DNA of 10,143 nt. Source: Neptuniibacter sp. (GTDB taxonomy: Bacteria; Pseudomonadota; Gammaproteobacteria; Pseudomonadales; Balneatricaceae). The notes under the pieces are model-generated. The model was not told the origin of the DNA and did not search any database. It saw nothing but the letters and a program-made list of their open reading frames with translations. The position numbers were made by a program, and so were the translations under genes. Below are positions 3 to 9,896 of this stretch, in pieces (position 1 is the stretch's first letter; each line of letters starts with the position of its first letter). The DNA lies in contig JASBRM010000150.1 of the NCBI GenBank assembly GCA_030149405.1, forward strand, positions 1 through 10,143, in the 5' to 3' direction.

Positions 3-290
3 ACACGGGCAAAGAGAGATCCCAGGAAAATGAGGCGCTGGGTTCATGAGGAAGAGATGGAAGCCATGCAGCAGCGGTTGAATGCTGCACCCGATACCAT
101 GCTGATCCGAAAACAGACGGTTGAACATCCCTTCGGGACGATCAAAGCCTGGATGGGGGCGACTCACTTCTTAACCAAGCGATTTAAAAATGTCAGTACA
201 GAGATGAGTCTTCATGTACTTGCCTATAATCTGAAGCGAGTTATCAATATCTTGGGCGTAAAAGAACTAACAGGAGCAATACAGGCTTAA
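3..290 (+). CDS. IS1182-family transposase, C-terminal part (gene begins before the window)
   Basis: The reading frame is open from the left edge and ends at TAA 288-290, leaving the last 95 residues. The segment TVEHPFGTIKAWMG (codons from about 117) is the signature of the C-terminal catalytic region of DDE transposases of the IS1182 group. The Glu at 123-125 is followed six residues later by Lys (144-146), matching the E-(6)-K part of the DDE/YREK motif. The end, with TEMSLHVLAYNLKRVI, is also typical of this family. In the family, this enzyme cuts and joins the ends of its own insertion sequence. An ATG at 30 lies inside the conserved domain and is not the true start. The catalytic Asp residues lie outside the window, so I cannot tell whether the copy is intact. 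Confidence 0.88.
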   Translation, partial: TRAKRDPRKMRRWVHEEEMEAMQQRLNAAPDTMLIRKQTVEHPFGTIKAWMGATHFLTKRFKNVSTEMSLHVLAYNLKRVINILGVKELTGAIQA

Positions 291-784: not shown

Positions 785-1720
785 ATGACAGAGATAGAAG
801 AATTAAAGAGCAAACTGGCTCGGATGAACCAGAAACCGCTAGTTGTTGCGACAGCAAAAGTTGAAAAATTCGAAGAAATCTCCTCAGGTCTGGTTCAATC
901 AGGGTGGACAGTGATCCCCGATATACTCAAGAAGTTCAAGAAGAAGCTCGAACCTTTTGTTAATGAGCTTATCGCAGCCAATAAATTTGTAGATTCAACC
1001 ATCACTGAATCAGTATTCATATTTAAAGGTGATTGTAGCTGCCAAGCATTGTATGTCATTGGTATTAATAACGATTGCGATATTACCGACATACAGAAAC
1101 AAATTGGATGTTTCATTCAGATAGCTACGGATCAGGGAATAATTATCAAACCTGATGAGAAGGGTAATGTTGTCATCTCTGTTTCTCAGTTTTTCCACTC
1201 GAACAGCCTGATCGACAAGGAAAATTATTCTGCTGACGTGTCAGTCGTTTTCTCAAAGTACATACGTGAGTTCGTTGAATGGTTAGGTAAGGCTAAAGAA
1301 AGGTCTCTACTTGGGCTTCAGCTAGAGAGTGCCAATCTATCGTTTGAATTTGGTGATCAGATGGCAACCATTGACTATGGTAAACCTCCGAAACCAACAG
1401 ATCATAGCGTGATCGGGAGGGTTAAGGGATTAACGGAAAAGGATCTGACAGTTGAGGTTATTGGGCAGCCGAAGAAAGGATTGGTCCTTGAACAACAGGA
1501 AGGTTTTAACAAAAGTGAAATGGCTGATGCATATGTTCACCGGACGTTTCTTGAGATTTCTTATCAGGTCAGAAAGAAATCACATTTTTTGAAAGGCGAG
1601 TCTTACTTTGTCAGTGGCAGACCTGCGCCTGAACATGAGATCTCTCAATACATAGAAAACCTAGAGACGGCTAAAGAACAACAGCAACAGCTTTTCACCG
1701 GCAATAATTTGGAAAAATAA
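785..1720 (+). CDS. Hypothetical protein, 311 residues, unrecognised
   Basis: The start ATG 785 follows GGAGGG (773-778) with a 6-nt gap, a strong ribosome binding site, and the frame ends at TAA 1718-1720. I do not recognise the family. No signal peptide or membrane segment is visible, so the protein is probably cytoplasmic. The N-terminal 65 residues are charged and look helical, with a lysine-rich patch (KKFKKK, about residues 48-53). The middle alternates short hydrophobic strands and polar turns. Residues from about 200 (DHSVIGRVKGLTEKDLTVEVIG) look beta-rich, and the tail is helical and glutamine-rich (KEQQQQ). The gene is convergent with the giant recombinase gene and its stop lies only 15 bp from that gene's stop. 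It is therefore probably cargo or an accessory gene of the same element, but nothing in the sequence shows a function. Confidence 0.72.
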   Translation: MTEIEELKSKLARMNQKPLVVATAKVEKFEEISSGLVQSGWTVIPDILKKFKKKLEPFVNELIAANKFVDSTITESVFIFKGDCSCQALYVIGINNDCDITDIQKQIGCFIQIATDQGIIIKPDEKGNVVISVSQFFHSNSLIDKENYSADVSVVFSKYIREFVEWLGKAKERSLLGLQLESANLSFEFGDQMATIDYGKPPKPTDHSVIGRVKGLTEKDLTVEVIGQPKKGLVLEQQEGFNKSEMADAYVHRTFLEISYQVRKKSHFLKGESYFVSGRPAPEHEISQYIENLETAKEQQQQLFTGNNLEK

Positions 1721-1735
1721 GTGGTGGTAATTCCA

Positions 1736-4700
1736 CTAATGATAATGGCGGCTAAATTCTAGGTATATGCCAACTGCAACGACGCATAATGCTAGATCAA
1801 AACTATTTCTTAGTATGTATTGCTGATTTCGCTCGATGATTAATGAGATGAAATCAGAGGTGCGGATATATCTACTGCGTGCATCACTATGTTGAAGATT
1901 ACTATCTAGTCTTAGTGGGGCTTCTCTGGCGCCTGATTCTTCATGAGGTATTAGCTCGAATCCATACCTCTGGCTAAGAGTGACTAGGTCGGGTATGGGT
2001 GATCTACAGGTGGTGCGGAATACAGAGATTGGAGTGCGGAAGTAATCTAGCAACGTTCTTACAAATGCAAAGTCATTTACGTGCACCAGTTGTACCTGCC
2101 TTGTCTTACCAAGGAGGTGCATAGGGTTTATAGGTTCGAATTCAATGAGCGAATCAAAGGGAGCAATACCGTTTTGTTTAACGACATCTAGAATCCGAGC
2201 CCAGCTTTCGTCATTGACACGAGAGATAAATTCTAGAGGGTCGTCTCTTCCTTTTATTGAAGTCTTTTCTCCTTTCTTTCTTCCATACTCCATTCTGGAG
2301 CCGATGGAAATAACAGTACGTTCTATACTCCAAACAGTTTCAGGGCTCAAATTTAAATAAGAACCGGCATGCTGGAAGTTCTTGCCAATTGAAACCAATC
2401 TCAGAAGTTTAAACGTATCCAGAAGCTGTAATTGCTCATATTTTGATGAGTTAGCTGTATTTAGAGTGTTGCACTCAAGTGGTTCAGGCTTGATCAGCTC
2501 ATCAGTATTGAAGGTCGCGTTAAGATCAAGATTTGTGGGATCTTGAGGAACAAGCGCATCTGACCAAAATGGGATGATATGTATATAGCTTCTAAAGGTT
2601 GTTCTTGGGGATGCGTGGCCCATTAAGCGTGCCAACGCCATTGCTGACCTTCGACATGGTTCGTGGTGATTTCCCAACAGGATTTCCCTAATCACTTGAG
2701 GGTTTGCTGTAGGAGGAAATATTCCTGAAGGCAAGTGCTCAATTATATCCAACAATGCTCCGGTGACGATATTTGCAAAGGAGTGACGATTGTCATGAAA
2801 CACGCATTCTTCGTTTTGCGTCACTTGTTTTAGCATTCGATTTAATCTTTGAGCTATCCGGGATAGGTGAGGAGTGATTGGGGGTAGCCTTACAGCAGTG
2901 TCTGGTTGAATAAAAAGTAAAGGACCGTTTGTACGCTCGCCGATACAGCTATCGTAGTTACTAAGCACTTTTTGGATTACCCATATCTCTTTACTGGTTA
3001 ACTCGAAGAGCAGGGGAACTACACGACGTGAGCTGAAGGTTTTTAAATCCCTGTATTTATTCCTGCGAACGAAGATGACTGGTTGGAAGCCATCTTGTGG
3101 TAGACATATATCTTCGCGTAATAGCCCTGCGGCTTCCATTAGTCTGAGCCCATATCGATAACTGCATATTTGGATAAAAGCAGCATATAGCTCTTCATCA
3201 TCTACACTTTCCTGCTCTGGGATCAGGCTTGAAATTGTAGCTAAATGGTCGGATTCCAAAATGAACCCAGGACGAACTGAACGGGCTGATATTGGTATGT
3301 CAATTTCGTCCCAAAGTGGAGGCGTGATACCTAGTGATGTGCTCCACTGGATGAAATTGCTCAAGACTATATAAAAATCTTCATTATTCTTTTTCTTTTT
3401 TCTGTACTCAAAGCAAGATTGATAGAAAGCAGTGATCTCTTCTTCATCCATTAGCATCAAGTCAGTGTTATAACCAAGTTCTTGGACAACATTACTCATT
3501 AATCCCCAATACTTTTTGATTGTGCTCTCTTTTAGATCTTTTGGGGTACGCAGATTGCCCCGACGTAGGCGATCTTCAAACCATTCAGAAACCAATAACA
3601 CAGAGGAACTAACTTTGCCTGACCATTTTTTGCTTAGGCTTTTAACCGCTTTAGCAATGTTTGCAGAGTTATTACCAGGAATTGATTTTTTAACAGCTGA
3701 ATAAAAGGTGAGTGCATTTGTATAAAGTTCTTTATCATCATTATCCGCGGAAGCGGTTCTGCCTTTCGGAAGGGATCTAAGTTTATTGAAATTTAAGTGA
3801 GTATCCTGTGCGTCGTTTCTTTTAGATCCATCAGCAAGGAGATACCGCTCTTCCTTCATAGTTTTTGCCCAGTTGACCACGCTAAAACTGGTGGATATCA
3901 CACGTCCTGAAAGCTCGCCACATAAAATGCCTGGTAGATGAACTAAATTACTTTGATCCATGATGCGACAAAGTACATAGATTAGCTCTTTGGGTGTGGA
4001 GCAAGAAAATGATAGGGGCTTATAGGAAGAGATAAACTTTACTAATGGCGTTAAGTGTTTCGGAATTTTATCTCCAAGTTGAATTACCTTTTTGCGATCA
4101 ATGGCAGCGCTGATGAATTGAGCTGCAAGGGAAGAAATTCTTTTTTGGATTGCCGGATCATAGGCTGCGCCTAGTTCTGGATGTTCGGTATATCGTAAGT
4201 AATAGTCAGCCCCATGCCGGATGAGTGCAAAACCCTTGTTACACATCACATCGTGCAGAAATCTGGGGGAGCAAATACGTGATTCTAAGCAGAGTAGAAT
4301 CGAGGCTGTAATCAGACCGTCTGTCTGACTGATTTTACTGATATGAAAGCTAGTATCCTGATCAGTTTGGCAGCACTTAATTAGAATTTCCCGTAGTTGA
4401 TCAGCGAGTTCACATGCATGGACAGCGATCGGTGTGGTTAAGCTAATCCCTGATTCAGGGATTCGGTATCGTTTTGACGCATGAACCTTCTTCGCTTTTG
4501 TAAGGCTAACACCTTCTAAAATTTTGATTAAATGTTGGTATCGCAACCCCGCTCTAGGCTGCGGAGTACCATTGCTCTTGAATAGCATGATTTTGGTGAG
4601 TTCATCTGTATGTTCACTTTCAATATCTTTGAAACTAATACCTTGGTTATCTAGGTATAGGCGAAGATCCAGATTGGCTCTTTTTATTGCTTTGACTGCG

Positions 4701-7165
4701 GATTTGCTGCGTTCAGTTTTTCTAAGCGCTATACCAAATTTTTTATTAGTTAGACTGGCTGGGTTAATGCTGGAATTAATTTGGATATCGCAGAGCTGAG
4801 GCTGGGAAAAATTAAGGTGTTTAAAAGCGCGCTCAAGATGGTCTATATATTTTTCTTTATCCTCTTTCCATGAGCGGCAGGAATAATCGCTGTACGTTTC
4901 CACGTCGCGTTCAGCATGACCACACCAGCCTTCAATCACCTCAGCGTCGACTCCAGACCTTGTGAGAAATTGGACAAAGCGGTGGCGCAAAATGTTAGCT
5001 GGGAGGGGGCAGTTGAATAGATCAATTTCTGCGAGGGAGCTAGCAGATACCCTATACCAGTCCAGTCTAGGCGATAAAAAGAAGAAAAAAGGAAGAACGT
5101 CAGATTGCTCACATTTTGAGAGCTTTATGATCTCCTTTGAAAGGCTTGGAGCCAGTGTTTGGTTGAGCCGAGAAAAACGCTTTAAATGTTCGAGATATCT
5201 TTCAATCACCTGTATCACAGAGGGACATAGTGGGCACAGGCGCCCTGTGTGGGTATGCCCGTCATTTTTATCTTCGATGTAAACGAAGCCTTCTGAAAGG
5301 TTAAAGAAAAGAGGGGATTCAAAGGGATCTATTACAGGTCTTGATCCCGTAGCAGCAAACAAGGAGGTAACTATATAAGCGGTTACTTGGTTGTGATGCA
5401 AGATGGGATCAGATAGCGCCGACTGATCGATTTTAGTATTGGCTGTAGTTACGGCCTCACGAAATATTTCATCATTCAGATCTAGTCGACTGCCCAGGCA
5501 GATAGATGAAGAGGAATGAAGTGATGATTCAAGTTGTAGTTGATGGGCTGCTTCTGCTTCCTCGCCCGTAATTGATAAATAAGCAGATGAACCAGGCTGT
5601 GCACTTCGCGGATGTGATGTGATTAATTTAACAAATGTAGGATTGTTGGTTTCTTCAAAAATGTTCTGTTGCCAATGCTTTCCAAGTAATGCAGGTGAGA
5701 GTCTGGACAATTCTTTAGGGATATTATTTATCCACCAGGAGCGAAAGTTTTCTGAGCTGGTTTGGTCCCAAAAATCCTTAATGGTATTTAGTTGAAAGAT
5801 TTTATTGGTTCGTGCTTTGATTATTTTGAGAGCATTGGACAGCGAATCGGGTAGCAAAAGCCGATAAGACTCTGAGCATGGACGAACCCAGCTTTCAAAC
5901 TGAGGCTCAATATTTTTAGAATTGTGCCTTTGGGGTGCTAGCCGGTGAAGGTGAGTAAGATCATTCGAGATACTCCATTCATGCTGTACTTCATCTGTAA
6001 TTTGGATTGCTTCAGAACGAACCGGTGAACGGGATAGCCAGAGTGATAACCAACAAATGATGCCTGCTGCCTGAGAATTTCTTTCTTCGCTCACTAACAG
6101 CTCTGAAATCCAGCGTCGAAGTACTGGTGTTTCATGTGGTAGAGGTTGATCCATTGTCCACTTCAGAAAGTGCTTTTCTTCGGTTGTTTGCATGAGCACC
6201 GAATTTTCTGAAAGTACTTTGTCGCCACCACTGATCAGATTGCGTTGGTCATCCGGGTGTTGGGAGAAGGGAATAAGATCAAGCTGTTCGTGTAAGGAGG
6301 AGCTAGTAAGGTCTTCCTCATTGGAGTCATAGATCGTGGAATCCCAATCGATAGGTTTTTCATTGCACTTGTTCGTGAATTTGAAATTTGGGCGTTCAAG
6401 ACTTCCAGCTTTACCAGTGCTGTTGATTTCTTTAGTTATCCCCTGAGCAACATTTGTTATTGAAGTGATAAATTCTGCTGGTGCGTCATCGTTAGGAATG
6501 TGTTTGGCTGCGTAAACTAGAGCATTGGAGAATTGTTCGAAGTCACAGTCCACCCCTCGAGTTAAAACCTTAAAGTTTTTCTGAAGCTGAGCAAATCCTT
6601 TGAACTGTTTATTGCGGTCCCTTTGATCATTTCTGGGGAAAAGCTGGCTTGAGAGTCTTTGAATGTAGTAGTCGCAACTATAATTTTTGTGTATCAAACG
6701 GTTAAGGTTCTGGACAATCAGCCACAGCTTGAACTGTGTATAGAAGCTTGATAGTTCCTCAGTGACTTCTTTAGGCGTTGATTGGGTAACTAAAGCGATC
6801 AAGTAAAGCGATTGAAGTTGGTTTTTGTATTCTTTACGGACGTCTGAGACGCTGCCGATAGAATGATAAGTGGGCTGCGATGACGAAATGTAAGTGGAGA
6901 TGAATTCTTCGAGAATTTGTGCAGCCTGGTTATCAGACCACTGATCAAGAGTTTTTAAGGTTTTTTCTGAGCTAAGGAACTCGATTATATTGCCGAGAGG
7001 CGAATACTTGTAATGATCGAGGTTAAAGGAGAGATAGATAGCGTTGAGCTCTTCTTGCAATCCAACGGATTCAGCCCAATTGGCTATATCGGTATATCCA
7101 GCTCGTTGCCTTAAGGTCATAGATTCGCCGAGCCGATTCGATTCAGTGTGACAATCCGTATCCAC
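1736..7165 (-). CDS. Giant tyrosine recombinase (integrase) with two recombinase-like catalytic regions, 1,809 residues
   Basis: The protein is a site-specific DNA recombinase of the tyrosine (phage integrase) superfamily and very probably moves the element it lies in. The complete catalytic set is C-terminal. It comprises R1341 (YGLRLMEAAGL), K1375 (LKTFSSRRVVPL), H1457 and R1460 (HDNRHSF), H1517 (LMGHASPRTT) and nucleophile Y1527 (FRSYIH). A helical core-binding-like segment precedes it (about 1190-1280). A second recombinase-like region lies at about 590-765: R609 (ATGSRP), K633 (YIEDK), N724-x-x-R727 (NILRHRF), H750 (WCGHAERD) and Y758 or Y761. Its HxxR histidine is Asn. Residues 1-560 are unrecognised and mostly helical. 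After the nucleophile, about 280 more residues include a possible helix-turn-helix (1587-1616). Usual integrases have 300-450 residues. Translation starts at GTG 7163-7165; the stop is TAG 1736-1738. It could be a fusion of recombinases that act as a set in other elements; this is inference. Confidence 0.9.
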   Translation of the reverse strand: MDTDCHTESNRLGESMTLRQRAGYTDIANWAESVGLQEELNAIYLSFNLDHYKYSPLGNIIEFLSSEKTLKTLDQWSDNQAAQILEEFISTYISSSQPTYHSIGSVSDVRKEYKNQLQSLYLIALVTQSTPKEVTEELSSFYTQFKLWLIVQNLNRLIHKNYSCDYYIQRLSSQLFPRNDQRDRNKQFKGFAQLQKNFKVLTRGVDCDFEQFSNALVYAAKHIPNDDAPAEFITSITNVAQGITKEINSTGKAGSLERPNFKFTNKCNEKPIDWDSTIYDSNEEDLTSSSLHEQLDLIPFSQHPDDQRNLISGGDKVLSENSVLMQTTEEKHFLKWTMDQPLPHETPVLRRWISELLVSEERNSQAAGIICWLSLWLSRSPVRSEAIQITDEVQHEWSISNDLTHLHRLAPQRHNSKNIEPQFESWVRPCSESYRLLLPDSLSNALKIIKARTNKIFQLNTIKDFWDQTSSENFRSWWINNIPKELSRLSPALLGKHWQQNIFEETNNPTFVKLITSHPRSAQPGSSAYLSITGEEAEAAHQLQLESSLHSSSSICLGSRLDLNDEIFREAVTTANTKIDQSALSDPILHHNQVTAYIVTSLFAATGSRPVIDPFESPLFFNLSEGFVYIEDKNDGHTHTGRLCPLCPSVIQVIERYLEHLKRFSRLNQTLAPSLSKEIIKLSKCEQSDVLPFFFFLSPRLDWYRVSASSLAEIDLFNCPLPANILRHRFVQFLTRSGVDAEVIEGWCGHAERDVETYSDYSCRSWKEDKEKYIDHLERAFKHLNFSQPQLCDIQINSSINPASLTNKKFGIALRKTERSKSAVKAIKRANLDLRLYLDNQGISFKDIESEHTDELTKIMLFKSNGTPQPRAGLRYQHLIKILEGVSLTKAKKVHASKRYRIPESGISLTTPIAVHACELADQLREILIKCCQTDQDTSFHISKISQTDGLITASILLCLESRICSPRFLHDVMCNKGFALIRHGADYYLRYTEHPELGAAYDPAIQKRISSLAAQFISAAIDRKKVIQLGDKIPKHLTPLVKFISSYKPLSFSCSTPKELIYVLCRIMDQSNLVHLPGILCGELSGRVISTSFSVVNWAKTMKEERYLLADGSKRNDAQDTHLNFNKLRSLPKGRTASADNDDKELYTNALTFYSAVKKSIPGNNSANIAKAVKSLSKKWSGKVSSSVLLVSEWFEDRLRRGNLRTPKDLKESTIKKYWGLMSNVVQELGYNTDLMLMDEEEITAFYQSCFEYRKKKKNNEDFYIVLSNFIQWSTSLGITPPLWDEIDIPISARSVRPGFILESDHLATISSLIPEQESVDDEELYAAFIQICSYRYGLRLMEAAGLLREDICLPQDGFQPVIFVRRNKYRDLKTFSSRRVVPLLFELTSKEIWVIQKVLSNYDSCIGERTNGPLLFIQPDTAVRLPPITPHLSRIAQRLNRMLKQVTQNEECVFHDNRHSFANIVTGALLDIIEHLPSGIFPPTANPQVIREILLGNHHEPCRRSAMALARLMGHASPRTTFRSYIHIIPFWSDALVPQDPTNLDLNATFNTDELIKPEPLECNTLNTANSSKYEQLQLLDTFKLLRLVSIGKNFQHAGSYLNLSPETVWSIERTVISIGSRMEYGRKKGEKTSIKGRDDPLEFISRVNDESWARILDVVKQNGIAPFDSLIEFEPINPMHLLGKTRQVQLVHVNDFAFVRTLLDYFRTPISVFRTTCRSPIPDLVTLSQRYGFELIPHEESGAREAPLRLDSNLQHSDARSRYIRTSDFISLIIERNQQYILRNSFDLALCVVAVGIYLEFSRHYH

Positions 7166-7172
7166 ATCAATA

Positions 7173-7178
7173 TCCCTT
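7173..7178 (-). promoter_or_regulatory. Ribosome binding site of the giant recombinase
   Basis: On the minus strand AAGGGA lies 7 nt before GTG 7163-7165. This supports the GTG as the start. The ATG at 7165-7167 overlaps it but is in another frame, and the next in-frame Met is residue 16. Confidence 0.6.
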
Positions 7179-7286: not shown

Positions 7287-7329
7287 CTCATAACCAAGGT
7301 CGTTGGTTCAAATCCAGCCCCCGCTACCA
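7287..7329 (+). tRNA. 3' remnant of initiator tRNA-fMet (CAT), attachment site of the element
   Basis: The stretch holds the anticodon loop CTCATAA (7287-7293, anticodon CAT 7289-7291), the T-stem GTTGG (7302-7306) and the T-loop TTCAAAT (7307-7313). It continues with the T-stem partner CCAGC (7314-7318), acceptor strand CCCCGCT (7319-7325) and ACCA (7326-7329). This matches initiator tRNA-fMet, in which CTCATAACCCGAAGGTCG precedes the T-arm. The acceptor, D-arm and 5' anticodon stem are missing to the left, so the gene is not functional here. Between loop and T-arm the window has CCAAGGTC where the E. coli gene has CCCGAAGGTC, two bases fewer. Either the remnant has decayed or the crossover lies a few bases to the right. 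A terminator hairpin follows at the normal distance, so this side is the original chromosome. Confidence 0.85.
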
Positions 7330-7339
7330 GATTCAAAAT

Positions 7340-7370
7340 AAAAAAGGTCATCCAACGGATGGCCTTTTTT
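7340..7370 (+). terminator. Intrinsic terminator of the tRNA-fMet unit
   Basis: GGTCATCC (7346-7353) pairs with GGATGGCC (7357-7364) around an AAC loop, 8 bp with one G-T pair. It is followed by six T (7365-7370) and preceded by six A (7340-7345), so it can work on both strands. It ends the tRNA transcript 10-35 bases after CCA. It is also the first of three copies of this hairpin in the repeat array. Confidence 0.85.
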
Positions 7371-7505
7371 ATTTTCTGCCAGCAGCGCTGTATTTGTTCC
7401 TTTAATCCCTTGGTTCAGCGATTGCGCAGCAATCACAATCGAGCGCGTCAGCGCGAAGCCCGAAGGGTGGTTGCAGCCAAAAGCTGCAACCAATAAATCC
7501 AGCCC
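7340..7505. repeat. Hairpin repeat unit 1
   Basis: Hairpins in order: terminator stem 7346-7364; GATTGC/GCAATC (7420-7425 with 7429-7434); GCGC/GCGC (7443-7446 with 7451-7454); CCC/GGG (7459-7461 with 7465-7467); and TGGTTGCAG/CTGCAACCA (7468-7476 with 7484-7492), with loop CCAAAAG. The unit closes with the tRNA-like string at 7495-7505. Confidence 0.8.
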
Positions 7506-7518
7506 TTAACTCAATATT

Positions 7519-7696
7519 AAAAAAGATCATGCATCTATCAAGAACGGATGGCCTTTTTTATTTTCTGCCAGCAGTGCCGAATTTGTTCCTTTAATTCATT
7601 TGGTTCAACGATTGCGCAGCGATCATCGCCGAGCACGAAGTGCGAAGCCCGTCAGGGTTGTTGCAGCCCTAAGCTGCAACAAGCAAATCCAGCCCC
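7519..7696. repeat. Hairpin repeat unit 2 (diverged)
   Basis: The terminator-like hairpin is eroded: the right arm GGATGGCC 7546-7553 and the T-run are kept, but the left arm is altered. The other stems persist with changed bases: GATTGC/GCGATC (7610-7615 with 7619-7624, one wobble), GCAC/GTGC (7633-7636 with 7640-7643), CCC/GGG (7648-7650 with 7655-7657) and TTGTTGCAG/CTGCAACAA (7658-7666 with 7674-7682). The unit closes with AAATCCAGCCCC at 7685-7696. Confidence 0.8.
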
Positions 7697-7708
7697 AATC
7701 AACACCTT

Positions 7709-7885
7709 AAAAGGTCATACATCTACCAAGTCTAGGATGGCCTTTTTTATTTTCTGCCCGCAGCGCTGTATTTGTTCCTTTAATTCCTTGGTTCAGCGAT
7801 TGCGCAGCAATCACAATCGAGCGCCTTTAGCGCGAAGCCCGAAGGGTGGTTGCAGCCAAAAGCTGCAACCAATAAATCCAGCCCC
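7709..7885. repeat. Hairpin repeat unit 3
   Basis: Its terminator-like stem is GGTCAT/ATGGCC (7713-7718 with 7737-7742) with a long loop, followed by six T. Further stems are GATTGC/GCAATC (7798-7803 with 7807-7812), GCGC/GCGC (7821-7824 with 7830-7833), CCC/GGG (7838-7840 with 7844-7846) and TGGTTGCAG/CTGCAACCA (7847-7855 with 7863-7871). The unit closes with AAATCCAGCCCC at 7874-7885. It is nearly identical to unit 1 over the hairpin part. Confidence 0.8.
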
Positions 7886-7999: not shown

Positions 8000-8051
8000 T
8001 AATTTAAAAGTAATAACCGAGTATGCTTTTATTTGAGTGATTCATGCCAGC

Positions 8052-8058
8052 AAAGGAG
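8052..8058 (+). promoter_or_regulatory. Ribosome binding site of edd
   Basis: AAAGGAG lies 8 nt before ATG 8067. It selects this start over the in-frame GTG at 8037, which would add ten residues not found in E. coli Edd. Confidence 0.8.
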
Positions 8059-8066
8059 TTAGGCCC

Positions 8067-9896
8067 ATGAACCCAGTTGTTGATAGTGTTACTGCCCGTA
8101 TATGTGAGCGAAGCAAACACACTCGTGATTCTTATCTGCAGCAAATGAAAAAGGCTGAGGATGATGGCGTACACAGATCCAGACTCTCTTGCGGTAATTT
8201 GGCACATGGTTTTGCAGCCTGTGGAGATACAGACAAGCAAGCCCTCAAACTCAGCAACTCTGTGAATGTTGCTATTGTTAATGCTTATAACGACATGCTG
8301 TCGGCTCACCAGCCTTTTGAAACATACCCTGATACCATTAGGAAAGCTGTTCGTGAAATGGGCTCTGTAGCTCAGGTTGCAGCAGGAGTGCCTGCAATGT
8401 GCGATGGGGTTACCCAAGGGCAGCCGGGCATGGATCTAAGTCTGTTTAGCCGTGATGTAATTGCTATGTCTACGGCCATTGGCCTTTCTCATAATATGTT
8501 TGATGCTGCACTTTATCTGGGAGTGTGCGACAAAATTGTGCCTGGGTTGATGATTGGCGCTTTACGCTTTGGTCATCTGCCCACTGTATTTGTACCAGCG
8601 GGTCCAATGCCTAGCGGGCTGCCAAACAAAGAAAAAGCCAGGATCAGGCAGCTGTTTGCGGAAGGTAAGATTGGTAGAAAAGAACTCTTAGAGTGTGAAT
8701 CTGATTCTTATCACAGTGCGGGTACTTGCACATTCTATGGAACAGCTAATACAAATCAGATGCTCATGGAAGTGATGGGGCTGCATTTGCCTGGTGGCAC
8801 TTTTGTAAACCCTGAGACGCCTCTTAGAGAAGCTTTGACAAGAGAGGCTGCGCAGAGAGCCGTTAAGCTGACAGCATCGAATGGCCGTTTTACGCCTTTG
8901 TATGAAATAGTCAATGAGCGCTCAATAGTAAATGCAATTGTTGCCCTCCTGGCTACCGGTGGCTCCACTAACCACACCATGCATATTGTCGCTATTGCCC
9001 GTGCTGCCGGAATAATTATCAACTGGGATGACTTTTCGGAACTGTCTTCTGTTGTGCCTTTATTGGCGAGGGTTTACCCAAATGGTAATGCAGATATTAA
9101 CCACTTCCATGCTGCTGGGGGGGTAGGATTTTTGATCTCTGAATTACTGAATTCAGGATATTTGCATGAAAATGTAATGACCATCATGGGCGAAGGCTTA
9201 TCAAGGTATATGCAGGAACCGTTCTTGCAGGAGGGCAAACTTGATTGGAAAGAGTCGACTAAATCTTCCCTCGATACGGCTGTTTTAGCTCCGGTTACAG
9301 ACGCCTTTCGTGCAGATGGCGGGCTGAAAGTTTTAGAAGGCAATCTGGGCCGTGGTGTGATTAAAACTTCTGCGGTTGCAGAGGAACACCTGGTTGTTGA
9401 AGCGCCTGCCGTCGTTTTTGAAGATCAGGAGGACTTTGCCGATGCTTTTAAACGCGGGGATCTGGATAAAGACTTTGTCGCGGTATTAAGGTATCAGGGG
9501 CCAAAAGCGATAGGCATGCCTGAACTGCATAAGTTAACCCCTTATCTAGGCGTTCTGCAGGATAGAGGCTTCAAGGTGGCTTTAGTAACGGATGGTCGAA
9601 TGTCTGGCGCCTCGGGTAAAGTCCCCGCAGCTATCCATGTCTGGCCAGAAGCTTTAGAAGGTGGAGCGCTGTCCAAAATTCAGGACGGTGACCTGATCAG
9701 GCTGGATGGTCTAGAAGGATCGCTGATGCTAGTGGCTGAGAATGATGAATGGCTATCACGCAGTGTTGAATCCGGTGGGGTTCCGATGGAAAACAATATG
9801 GCGATGGGCAGAGAGTTGTTTTCTGCTTTTCGTAATCAAGTTGGTTGTGCTGAAGAGGGTGCATCTGTATTCGATTTTTCAGCTATAAATGGATGA
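8067..9896 (+). CDS. edd: Phosphogluconate dehydratase (6-phosphogluconate to KDPG)
   Basis: Edd is the first committed enzyme of the Entner-Doudoroff pathway. It dehydrates 6-phosphogluconate to 2-keto-3-deoxy-6-phosphogluconate in the cytoplasm, using an iron-sulfur cluster (IlvD/Edd family). The 609-residue product is close to the 603 residues of E. coli Edd and aligns along its whole length from the first residues (MNP, then RI.ERS). Family motifs include [11 protein letters not shown] (42-52), [10 protein letters not shown] (74-83), MCDGVTQG (111-118), [19 protein letters not shown] (Cys 221), [11 protein letters not shown] (from 296), [11 protein letters not shown] and [12 protein letters not shown] (507-518). 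Cys 112 and Cys 221 are the likely cluster ligands, with Cys 42 a further candidate. No frameshift or missing motif is visible. The gene is convergent with eda, 49 bp apart, so the two cannot share one transcript as they do in E. coli. Confidence 0.97.

What the first reader, a model, noticed from the sequence alone, without database searches (positions are those of the whole stretch)
1736..7165. One 1,809-residue polypeptide carrying two tyrosine-recombinase catalytic regions
Ordinary integrases have 300-450 residues and one catalytic domain. Here two sets of recombinase boxes lie about 750 residues apart in one uninterrupted frame, with large unrecognised N- and C-terminal parts. Some elements (Tn554-like, the RIT recombinase trios, the gamma-mobile-trio islands) use several adjacent proteins for movement. 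This may be a single-chain version of such a set, or an internal duplication in which one domain cuts and the other holds the complex. I know of no characterised enzyme of this layout, but I cannot search.
Basis: partly seen in the sequence, partly recalled or inferred. Interest (0 to 1): 0.78.

Follow-up and report, generated by a model that had tools for sequence, protein, structure and literature searches.

The report
Single-chain fused pair of DNA recombinases
One very long bacterial protein joins two recombinase units that relatives make as two separate neighbouring proteins; only the second unit keeps a full DNA-cutting site, which suggests a built-in cutter-plus-helper machine for moving a mobile element.

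Summary
Confirmed: 1736-7165 (minus strand) is one frame of 1,809 residues with two tyrosine-recombinase regions, box-I arginines 732 residues apart. It is no artefact: P0002 (1,801 aa, another contig) is 90% identical, and two further searches gave 22 single-chain proteins of 1,618-1,971 aa. In 81 of 91 loci (one counted twice) relatives carry the halves as two adjacent genes in this order, so this is a gene fusion, arisen at least twice. The regions differ: the second keeps R-K-H-R-H-Y; the first keeps the R-K-R-H pocket, but its HxxR histidine is Asn in 79 of 85 sequences and no tyrosine is conserved, so it is probably a pseudo-recombinase. A third, degenerate fold probably precedes it. Unfused Acinetobacter relatives show a sharp element end in at least six different flanks. 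A tRNA-fMet 3' fragment 122 bp before the gene is a candidate attachment site. Best reading: a single-chain recombination module in which one domain cuts and a tethered partner helps hold or restrict the synapse; the roles are inferred. New variant of a known kind.

The parts
1736..7165 (-). Single-chain double tyrosine-recombinase ORF, 1,809 aa, GTG start
4766..7165 (-). Residues 1-800, equivalent of gene 1 of unfused relatives
   Evidence: profile match to residues 66-793 (the profile contains the window); alignment A2
1739..4765 (-). Residues 801-1809, equivalent of gene 2 of unfused relatives
   Evidence: profile match to residues 803-1804 (the profile contains the window); alignment A3
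5546..6214 (-). Residues 318-540, degenerate recombinase/topoisomerase-IB-like fold (probable)
4796..5500 (-). Residues 556-790, recombinase region 1: phosphate-binding pocket kept, HxxR His is Asn, no conserved Tyr (pseudo-recombinase)
3776..4450 (-). Residues 906-1130, helices around three strands; possible further degenerate fold, not above noise
   Evidence: secondary structure; hhalign score 11.3 against unrelated parts up to 11.2
3326..3736 (-). Residues 1144-1280, helical core-binding-like domain
   Evidence: predicted helices; structural rows that extend into it
2531..3283 (-). Residues 1295-1545, catalytic tyrosine-recombinase domain (R1341, K1375, H1457, R1460, H1517)
2585..2587 (-). 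Codon of the predicted nucleophile Tyr1527
   Evidence: Y in 29 of 29 single-chain sequences
1739..2530 (-). Residues 1546-1809, C-terminal part, fold not resolved (mostly pLDDT under 50)
7173..7178 (-). Shine-Dalgarno-like AAGGGA, 7 nt before the GTG
   Evidence: sequence printed
7287..7329 (+). 3' part of a tRNA-fMet gene (anticodon loop to CCA), candidate attachment-site half
   Evidence: 96% match of 7287-7363 to the fMet region of genome G008; intact fMet gene on contig C200 of the own genome
785..1720 (+). Convergent 311-aa ORF, no known family; possible partner by position only

Best explanation
The ORF is the recombination protein of an integrative mobile element, made by fusing two adjacent large-recombinase genes into one chain. 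Shown by sequence: relatives carry the two halves as neighbouring genes; fused forms are diverged and arose at least twice; region 2 has a complete tyrosine-recombinase active site; region 1 has the fold and the pocket residues, but its family has lost the HxxR histidine and has no conserved tyrosine. Inferred: region 2, with the helical domain before it, binds a core site and cuts through Tyr1527; region 1 binds a neighbouring half-site as a non-cutting partner in the synapse; fusion fixes a 1:1 ratio of cutter to helper, which unfused relatives may reach by overlapping genes. A synapse with non-cutting protomers would favour exchange of one strand pair, as reported for SE elements, which also encode a recombinase-fold protein (Tfp) without the catalytic residues. 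Also inferred: the window's element ends near the tRNA-fMet fragment just before the gene.
For: Open frame and 90% identical relative on another contig. Unfused pairs: 81 loci, 53 overlapping and 25 within 0-10 bp by the earliest start codon. Single-chain relatives. Residue counts. Folds. At least two fusions. Sharp element end in different flanks of Acinetobacter pairs. tRNA fragment.
Against: Tyr758 exists in the window and P0002 (2 of 29 single chains) and at the same place in L164, so region 1 could still cut in this branch. No movement was observed. The far end of the window's element is not in the contig. Of 91 loci scanned ten hold a tRNA; none of the ten shows a displaced tRNA copy longer than 15 nt, so tRNA targeting is not shown for the family. 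The small upstream ORF seen in 73 of 81 pairs is missing in the window. Of four further chains L162 has Gln for the GH histidine, Tyr for the HxxR histidine of region 2 and Arg at the Asn position of region 1; L163 has Tyr for the HxxR histidine of region 2. For the N-half plain Foldseek gave no significant match.
Confidence: 0.68

Rival explanations
1. Both regions cut: a single-chain equivalent of a two-recombinase system such as XerC/XerD, each exchanging one strand.
For: The pocket of region 1 is invariant (R609, K633, R642, R727, H750 in 85 of 85); Tyr758 is present in window, P0002 and L164; Asn in place of the HxxR His might be tolerated (inference).
Against: Tyr758 in 3 of 85 and Tyr761 in 19 of 85 gene-1 sequences, Asn for His in 79 of 85; the nearest other relatives P0024 and P0025 lack Tyr758.
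Confidence: 0.13
2. Region 1 is not a synapse member but an arm-site, end-recognition or directionality domain, working like an accessory factor.
For: It lacks the nucleophile; the extra degenerate fold and the helical N-part offer further DNA-binding surfaces (inference); SE and GInt elements need further proteins besides their cutting recombinases.
Against: Invariant active-site pocket residues suggest binding at a scissile phosphate rather than at a remote arm site.
Confidence: 0.25
3. A domesticated or dead remnant: a conserved DNA-binding protein no longer moving DNA, in a degraded island.
For: IS1182 fragment at 3-290; tRNA half with two bases missing against the intact gene; no small upstream ORF.
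Against: Region 2 residues intact and the frame open in P0002 at 90% identity; R, K, R, H and Y of region 2 intact in 29 of 29 single chains.
Confidence: 0.12
4. Assembly error or very recent accidental fusion.
For: Unfused relatives exist; the contig is short (10,143 bp).
Against: P0002 on another contig (63,363 bp) and 22 further single-chain proteins; two long chains in a one-contig genome, G649.
Confidence: 0.02

Closest known systems
SE (strand-biased circularizing integrative elements; intA-tfp-intB-srap)
   Same: Recombinase genes at one end of the element; an oversized recombinase; a recombinase-fold protein without the catalytic residues (Tfp). Seen: PMC10214605 section 3 (first part), sections 6, 12, 13; PMC9345347 passages.
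   Different: Four genes and two RHRY recombinases there; here one chain (or two large genes plus a small ORF) with one complete active site. Sequence relation could not be tested: no SE proteins were at hand.
GInt (ginABCD genomic islands)
   Same: Recombinase operon at one end, variable DNA after it; one of the set (GinC) lacks part of the catalytic motif. Seen: PMC5385486 abstract and passages.
   Different: Three recombinase genes plus ginD; here two parts in one chain. The far end was not found here. Accession LT671993 was not held, so homology is untested.
Gamma-Mobile-Trio (GmtY/GmtZ/GmtX; names GmtZ and GmtX recalled)
   Same: The small ORF plus two large ones of the unfused relatives is a superficial likeness.
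   Different: NCBIfam GmtY is a 441-position model; best score here 18.7 bits against a cut-off of 340. The Gmt paper itself is not held; only passages and references in papers that cite it were seen.
Tn554 (TnpA/TnpB/TnpC) and RIT elements
   Same: Several tyrosine recombinases used together.
   Different: Separate proteins; RIT proteins 315-410 aa, all with catalytic tyrosine (PMC10214605 Table 1).
Unfused gene pairs found here in Acinetobacter, Psychrobacter, Vibrio, Aeromonas and others
   Same: Same two parts, same order, same residue pattern.
   Different: Two genes instead of one, in 73 of 81 with a small ORF in front.

Membership tests
Tyrosine recombinase (region 2) | Catalytic fold with R-K-H-R-H/W-Y | tested here: met
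   Fold: R, K, R, H, Y in 29 of 29 single chains, HxxR His in 27 of 29
Tyrosine recombinase (region 1) | Catalytic fold | tested here: met
Tyrosine recombinase (region 1) | Complete catalytic set with Tyr nucleophile | tested here: not met
   His to Asn 79 of 85, Tyr758 3 of 85; the window itself has Asn724 and Tyr758
Gene-1/gene-2 recombinase pair family (defined here) | Homology of both halves to the two adjacent genes | tested here: met
   tblastn of the window protein to L004: E 2.7e-16 (486-778) and 1.2e-11 (1215-1530) (30-odd loci searched); hmmsearch E 9e-230 and 6e-295 with profiles that contain the window
Gamma-Mobile-Trio | GmtY equivalog score above cut-off | tested here: not met
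   Not listed for the window protein; P0010 18.7 of 340 bits
SE elements | Adjacent genes intA, tfp, intB, srap with RHRY in IntA and IntB | tested here: not met
   One ORF with one complete set between a tRNA fragment and a convergent ORF; gene order from PMC10214605. The far part of the element is not in the contig
SE elements | Strand-biased circle formation without an empty site | not testable with these tools
   needs DNA from the organism
GInt | ginABCD operon of four genes at one end | tested here: not met
   One ORF in the window; homology to Gin proteins not tested
RIT | Three recombinases of 315-410 aa, all with catalytic tyrosine | tested here: not met
tRNA-targeting integrative element | Displaced tRNA 3' end at one end and intact tRNA at the other | tested here: inconclusive
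   3' fragment at 7287-7329; other end outside the contig; no such pair in ten relatives with a tRNA

The most novel reading that the evidence does not exclude
A recombinase that carries its own dead partner: each chain holds one active and one inactive recombinase domain (plus at least one more degenerate copy), so a dimer builds a four-domain ring with only two cutters. This permits exchange of one strand pair only and drives copy-out style movement. The layout was invented at least twice by fusing a coupled gene pair.
Probability: 0.3. Interest if true: 0.82.

Novelty: new variant of a known kind. Interest (0 to 1): 0.64.

Why it matters
Multi-recombinase elements (SE, GInt, Tn554) are known, but the role of each recombinase-fold protein is open (PMC10214605, section 13). 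A natural single chain fixes composition and stoichiometry, so the question 'is one recombinase-fold subunit a non-cutting synapse member?' becomes testable with one protein and point mutants. Relatives were met in Gammaproteobacteria, Alphaproteobacteria (Sphingobium, Paracoccus), Malonomonas and unnamed sources. In the six annotated plasmid loci gene 1 is called hypothetical (five) or integrase (one), so such elements may be overlooked (inference).

Tried and rejected
Direct searches with the window protein in genome contigs and viral contigs found no relative; phages gave four records at E 2 or worse; 57 genomes (own included) gave the own match and one weak single-domain match. Alignment scans of viral contigs gave none (A7) and one partial locus, L066 (A6). 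GMT, SE and GInt routes: the Gmt paper was not found in the library; the records of a SE-bearing plasmid and of pGInt0 are not held.

tRNA targeting as a rule of the family: ten loci with a tRNA tested for a displaced copy, none had one. A right-hand inverted copy of the Acinetobacter terminus was not found in the DNA held for 19 loci. An empty site beside edd was sought in the genus; none of 10 other genomes held an edd at E<=1e-200, so it could not be shown; the neighbour of another fMet locus was not found in the own genome. The convergent 311-aa ORF has look-alikes by position in L161 and L164 but no detectable sequence similarity, no match but itself in 57 genomes and only E 0.37 in six genomes with relatives. 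Four recombinase folds per chain: the fourth (906-1130) was not above noise. Papers on double recombinase chains: one search with six phrases gave one unrelated hit.

Full report
WHAT IS THERE. The window is a whole contig, C187 of a 2.9-Mb, 397-contig genome. The ORF 1736-7165 lies on the minus strand, has a GTG start with AAGGGA seven bases before it, and encodes 1,809 residues without a stop. Pfam recognises one integrase domain (1326-1466, 26.5 bits, slightly below the curated 27.1) and nothing in 560-820. NCBIfam gives two weak Xer matches, one of them at 717-752, the box-II part of region 1 (E 0.011).

IT IS NOT AN ARTEFACT. The protein search with the whole chain found one relative, P0002, 1,801 aa, 90% identical over its length, on a 63,363-bp contig. 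Searching with the Pseudidiomarina marina single chain (L072) gave P0003-P0011, 1,869-1,971 aa, 25-92% identical. Searching with P0011 gave P0012-P0025: 12 of these 14 are 1,772-1,906 aa; P0021 is 1,618 aa and P0020 1,179 aa. In these two searches only the roughly 8,000 candidates sharing most words were scored, so the numbers are lower bounds. Of 369 genomes drawn from the class, 10 (own included) matched the gene-2 alignment at E<=1e-8, with an 1,832-residue frame in G168. Of 398 drawn from the phylum, 20 (own included) matched the single-chain alignment at E<=1e-10; frames over 1,700 residues were seen in the own genome, G649 (two, in a one-contig genome) and G531.

UNFUSED RELATIVES. tblastn in plasmids found matches to both regions in Vibrio, Aeromonas and Acinetobacter. 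Of seven plasmid loci looked at, six have a gene of 725-790 aa followed on the same strand by one of 995-1,120 aa; L007 (Sphingobium) has 306 and 947 aa. A scan of genome contigs gave 73 loci, mostly Acinetobacter and Psychrobacter. Of 91 loci examined, 81 have separate gene 1 and gene 2 hits (L024 and L135 are the same contig), 5 have a single chain or part of one (window, L072, L025, L032, and L100, whose N-half gave no significant profile hit), and 5 lack gene 1. In the 81 pairs gene 2 overlaps gene 1 in 53 and follows within 0-10 bp in 25 (earliest start codons taken, so overlaps are upper values); the other three lie 82, 819 and 2,216 bp away; 78 of 81 are in different frames. A small ORF of 95-381 aa stands directly before gene 1 in 73 of 81; these fall into 12 clusters by blastp, three of them large. 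Such an ORF also precedes the single chains L072 (214 aa) and L025 (226 aa), overlapping by 4 nt. The window has none.

EVOLUTION. On a tree of 45 gene-2 parts (quick search, SH-aLRT support) the window groups with 12 other single chains (support 99), while the Idiomarina-type single chains sit beside Vibrio/Aeromonas pairs (support 95); the tree needs four changes, and well-supported branches force at least two. Holding all single chains together is rejected (AU p 1.5e-5), and so is holding these two groups together (p 2.2e-4). Caution: branches are long, and the groups were named after the tree was seen.

THE TWO REGIONS DIFFER. In 85 gene-1 sequences (84 loci plus P0002; five loci without gene 1 and the cut or duplicate L126 and L024 left out, L100 added by hand; many Acinetobacter rows are near copies) R609, K633, R642, R727 and H750 are invariant; the HxxR histidine is Asn in 79 (His in 1); Tyr758 is Tyr in 3 and Tyr761 in 19. 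In 86 gene-2 sequences R1341 and K1375 are invariant, H1457 is His in 81, and R1460, H1517 and Y1527 are kept in 85, one gap each. In 29 single chains (P0020 and L032 partial) the pattern is the same: Asn724 in 28, Tyr758 in 2; in region 2 R, K, R, H and Y in 29, HxxR His in 27; the spacing R609 to R1341 is 703-802 in the 28 with both. Of four more chains added afterwards, L161 and the partial L164 fit (L164 has Tyr at 758), L163 has Tyr for the HxxR histidine of region 2, and L162 departs in both regions.

MOBILITY AND SITE. Acinetobacter pairs share a sharp left end, TAACAGAAAACTAAAAAAAA. It was found before gene 2 in all 19 loci searched, at 2,978-2,987 bp in 18 and at 3,014 bp with four mismatches in L009; the DNA outside is of at least six different kinds. 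In many pairwise comparisons identity ends soon after gene 2 (whose output was cut). This is the layout of an element with its recombinase genes at one end. In the window, 7287-7329 is the 3' part of an initiator tRNA-Met gene; an intact copy with a similar 3' flank is on contig C200, and the region matches the fMet region of G008 at 96%. It reads from the anticodon loop on, with two bases missing after the loop. I take it as a candidate attachment-site half; the far end is outside the contig, and the tRNA test in other loci was negative.

MECHANISM. Shown by sequence: fusion, order, residue pattern, predicted folds, mobility of relatives. Inferred: region 2 cuts; region 1 binds DNA without cutting; the fusion fixes a ratio that unfused relatives may reach by coupled translation. 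SE elements, which also encode a catalytically empty recombinase-fold protein and show strand bias (PMC10214605, parts read), are the best functional analogue, but membership fails on gene content and was not testable on sequence.

NOVELTY. In the open-access library, one search with six phrases for two or fused tyrosine-recombinase domains returned one unrelated paper; most subscription papers are not covered. P0010 is named 'tyrosine-type recombinase/integrase' [Idiomarina zobellii], so single members are deposited; in the searches made I saw no description of the architecture.

Noticed in passing
window 7357-7884: Three tandem repeats of about 189 bp behind the tRNA-fMet 3' fragment; repeated tRNA-tail matches also lie behind fMet genes in other genomes of the genus.
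   Followed up: partly
window 8037-9896 and G000:C14: Two edd (6-phosphogluconate dehydratase) genes, 84% identical, in the same genome; none of 10 other genus members had a match at E<=1e-200.
   Followed up: no
window 3-290: 3' end of an IS1182-type transposase gene at the contig start; perhaps where assembly stopped.
   Followed up: no
window 785-1720; L161 3330-4310; L164 5242-6135: A convergent ORF of about 300 aa ends at the 3' end of the recombinase gene in these three loci, without detectable sequence similarity.
   Followed up: partly
L032 (G199:C33): The N-terminal part of gene 1 seems to be a separate 521-aa ORF overlapping a 1,278-aa chain by 43 nt: another split point or a frameshift.
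   Followed up: no
L140 (Vibrio cyclitrophicus plasmid pLMG21359): Xylan-use genes follow the recombinase pair, possibly cargo.
   Followed up: no
L004, gene 2 residues 782-813: Weak helix-turn-helix match in the C-terminal part (HTH_23 E 0.005, below cut-off).
   Followed up: no
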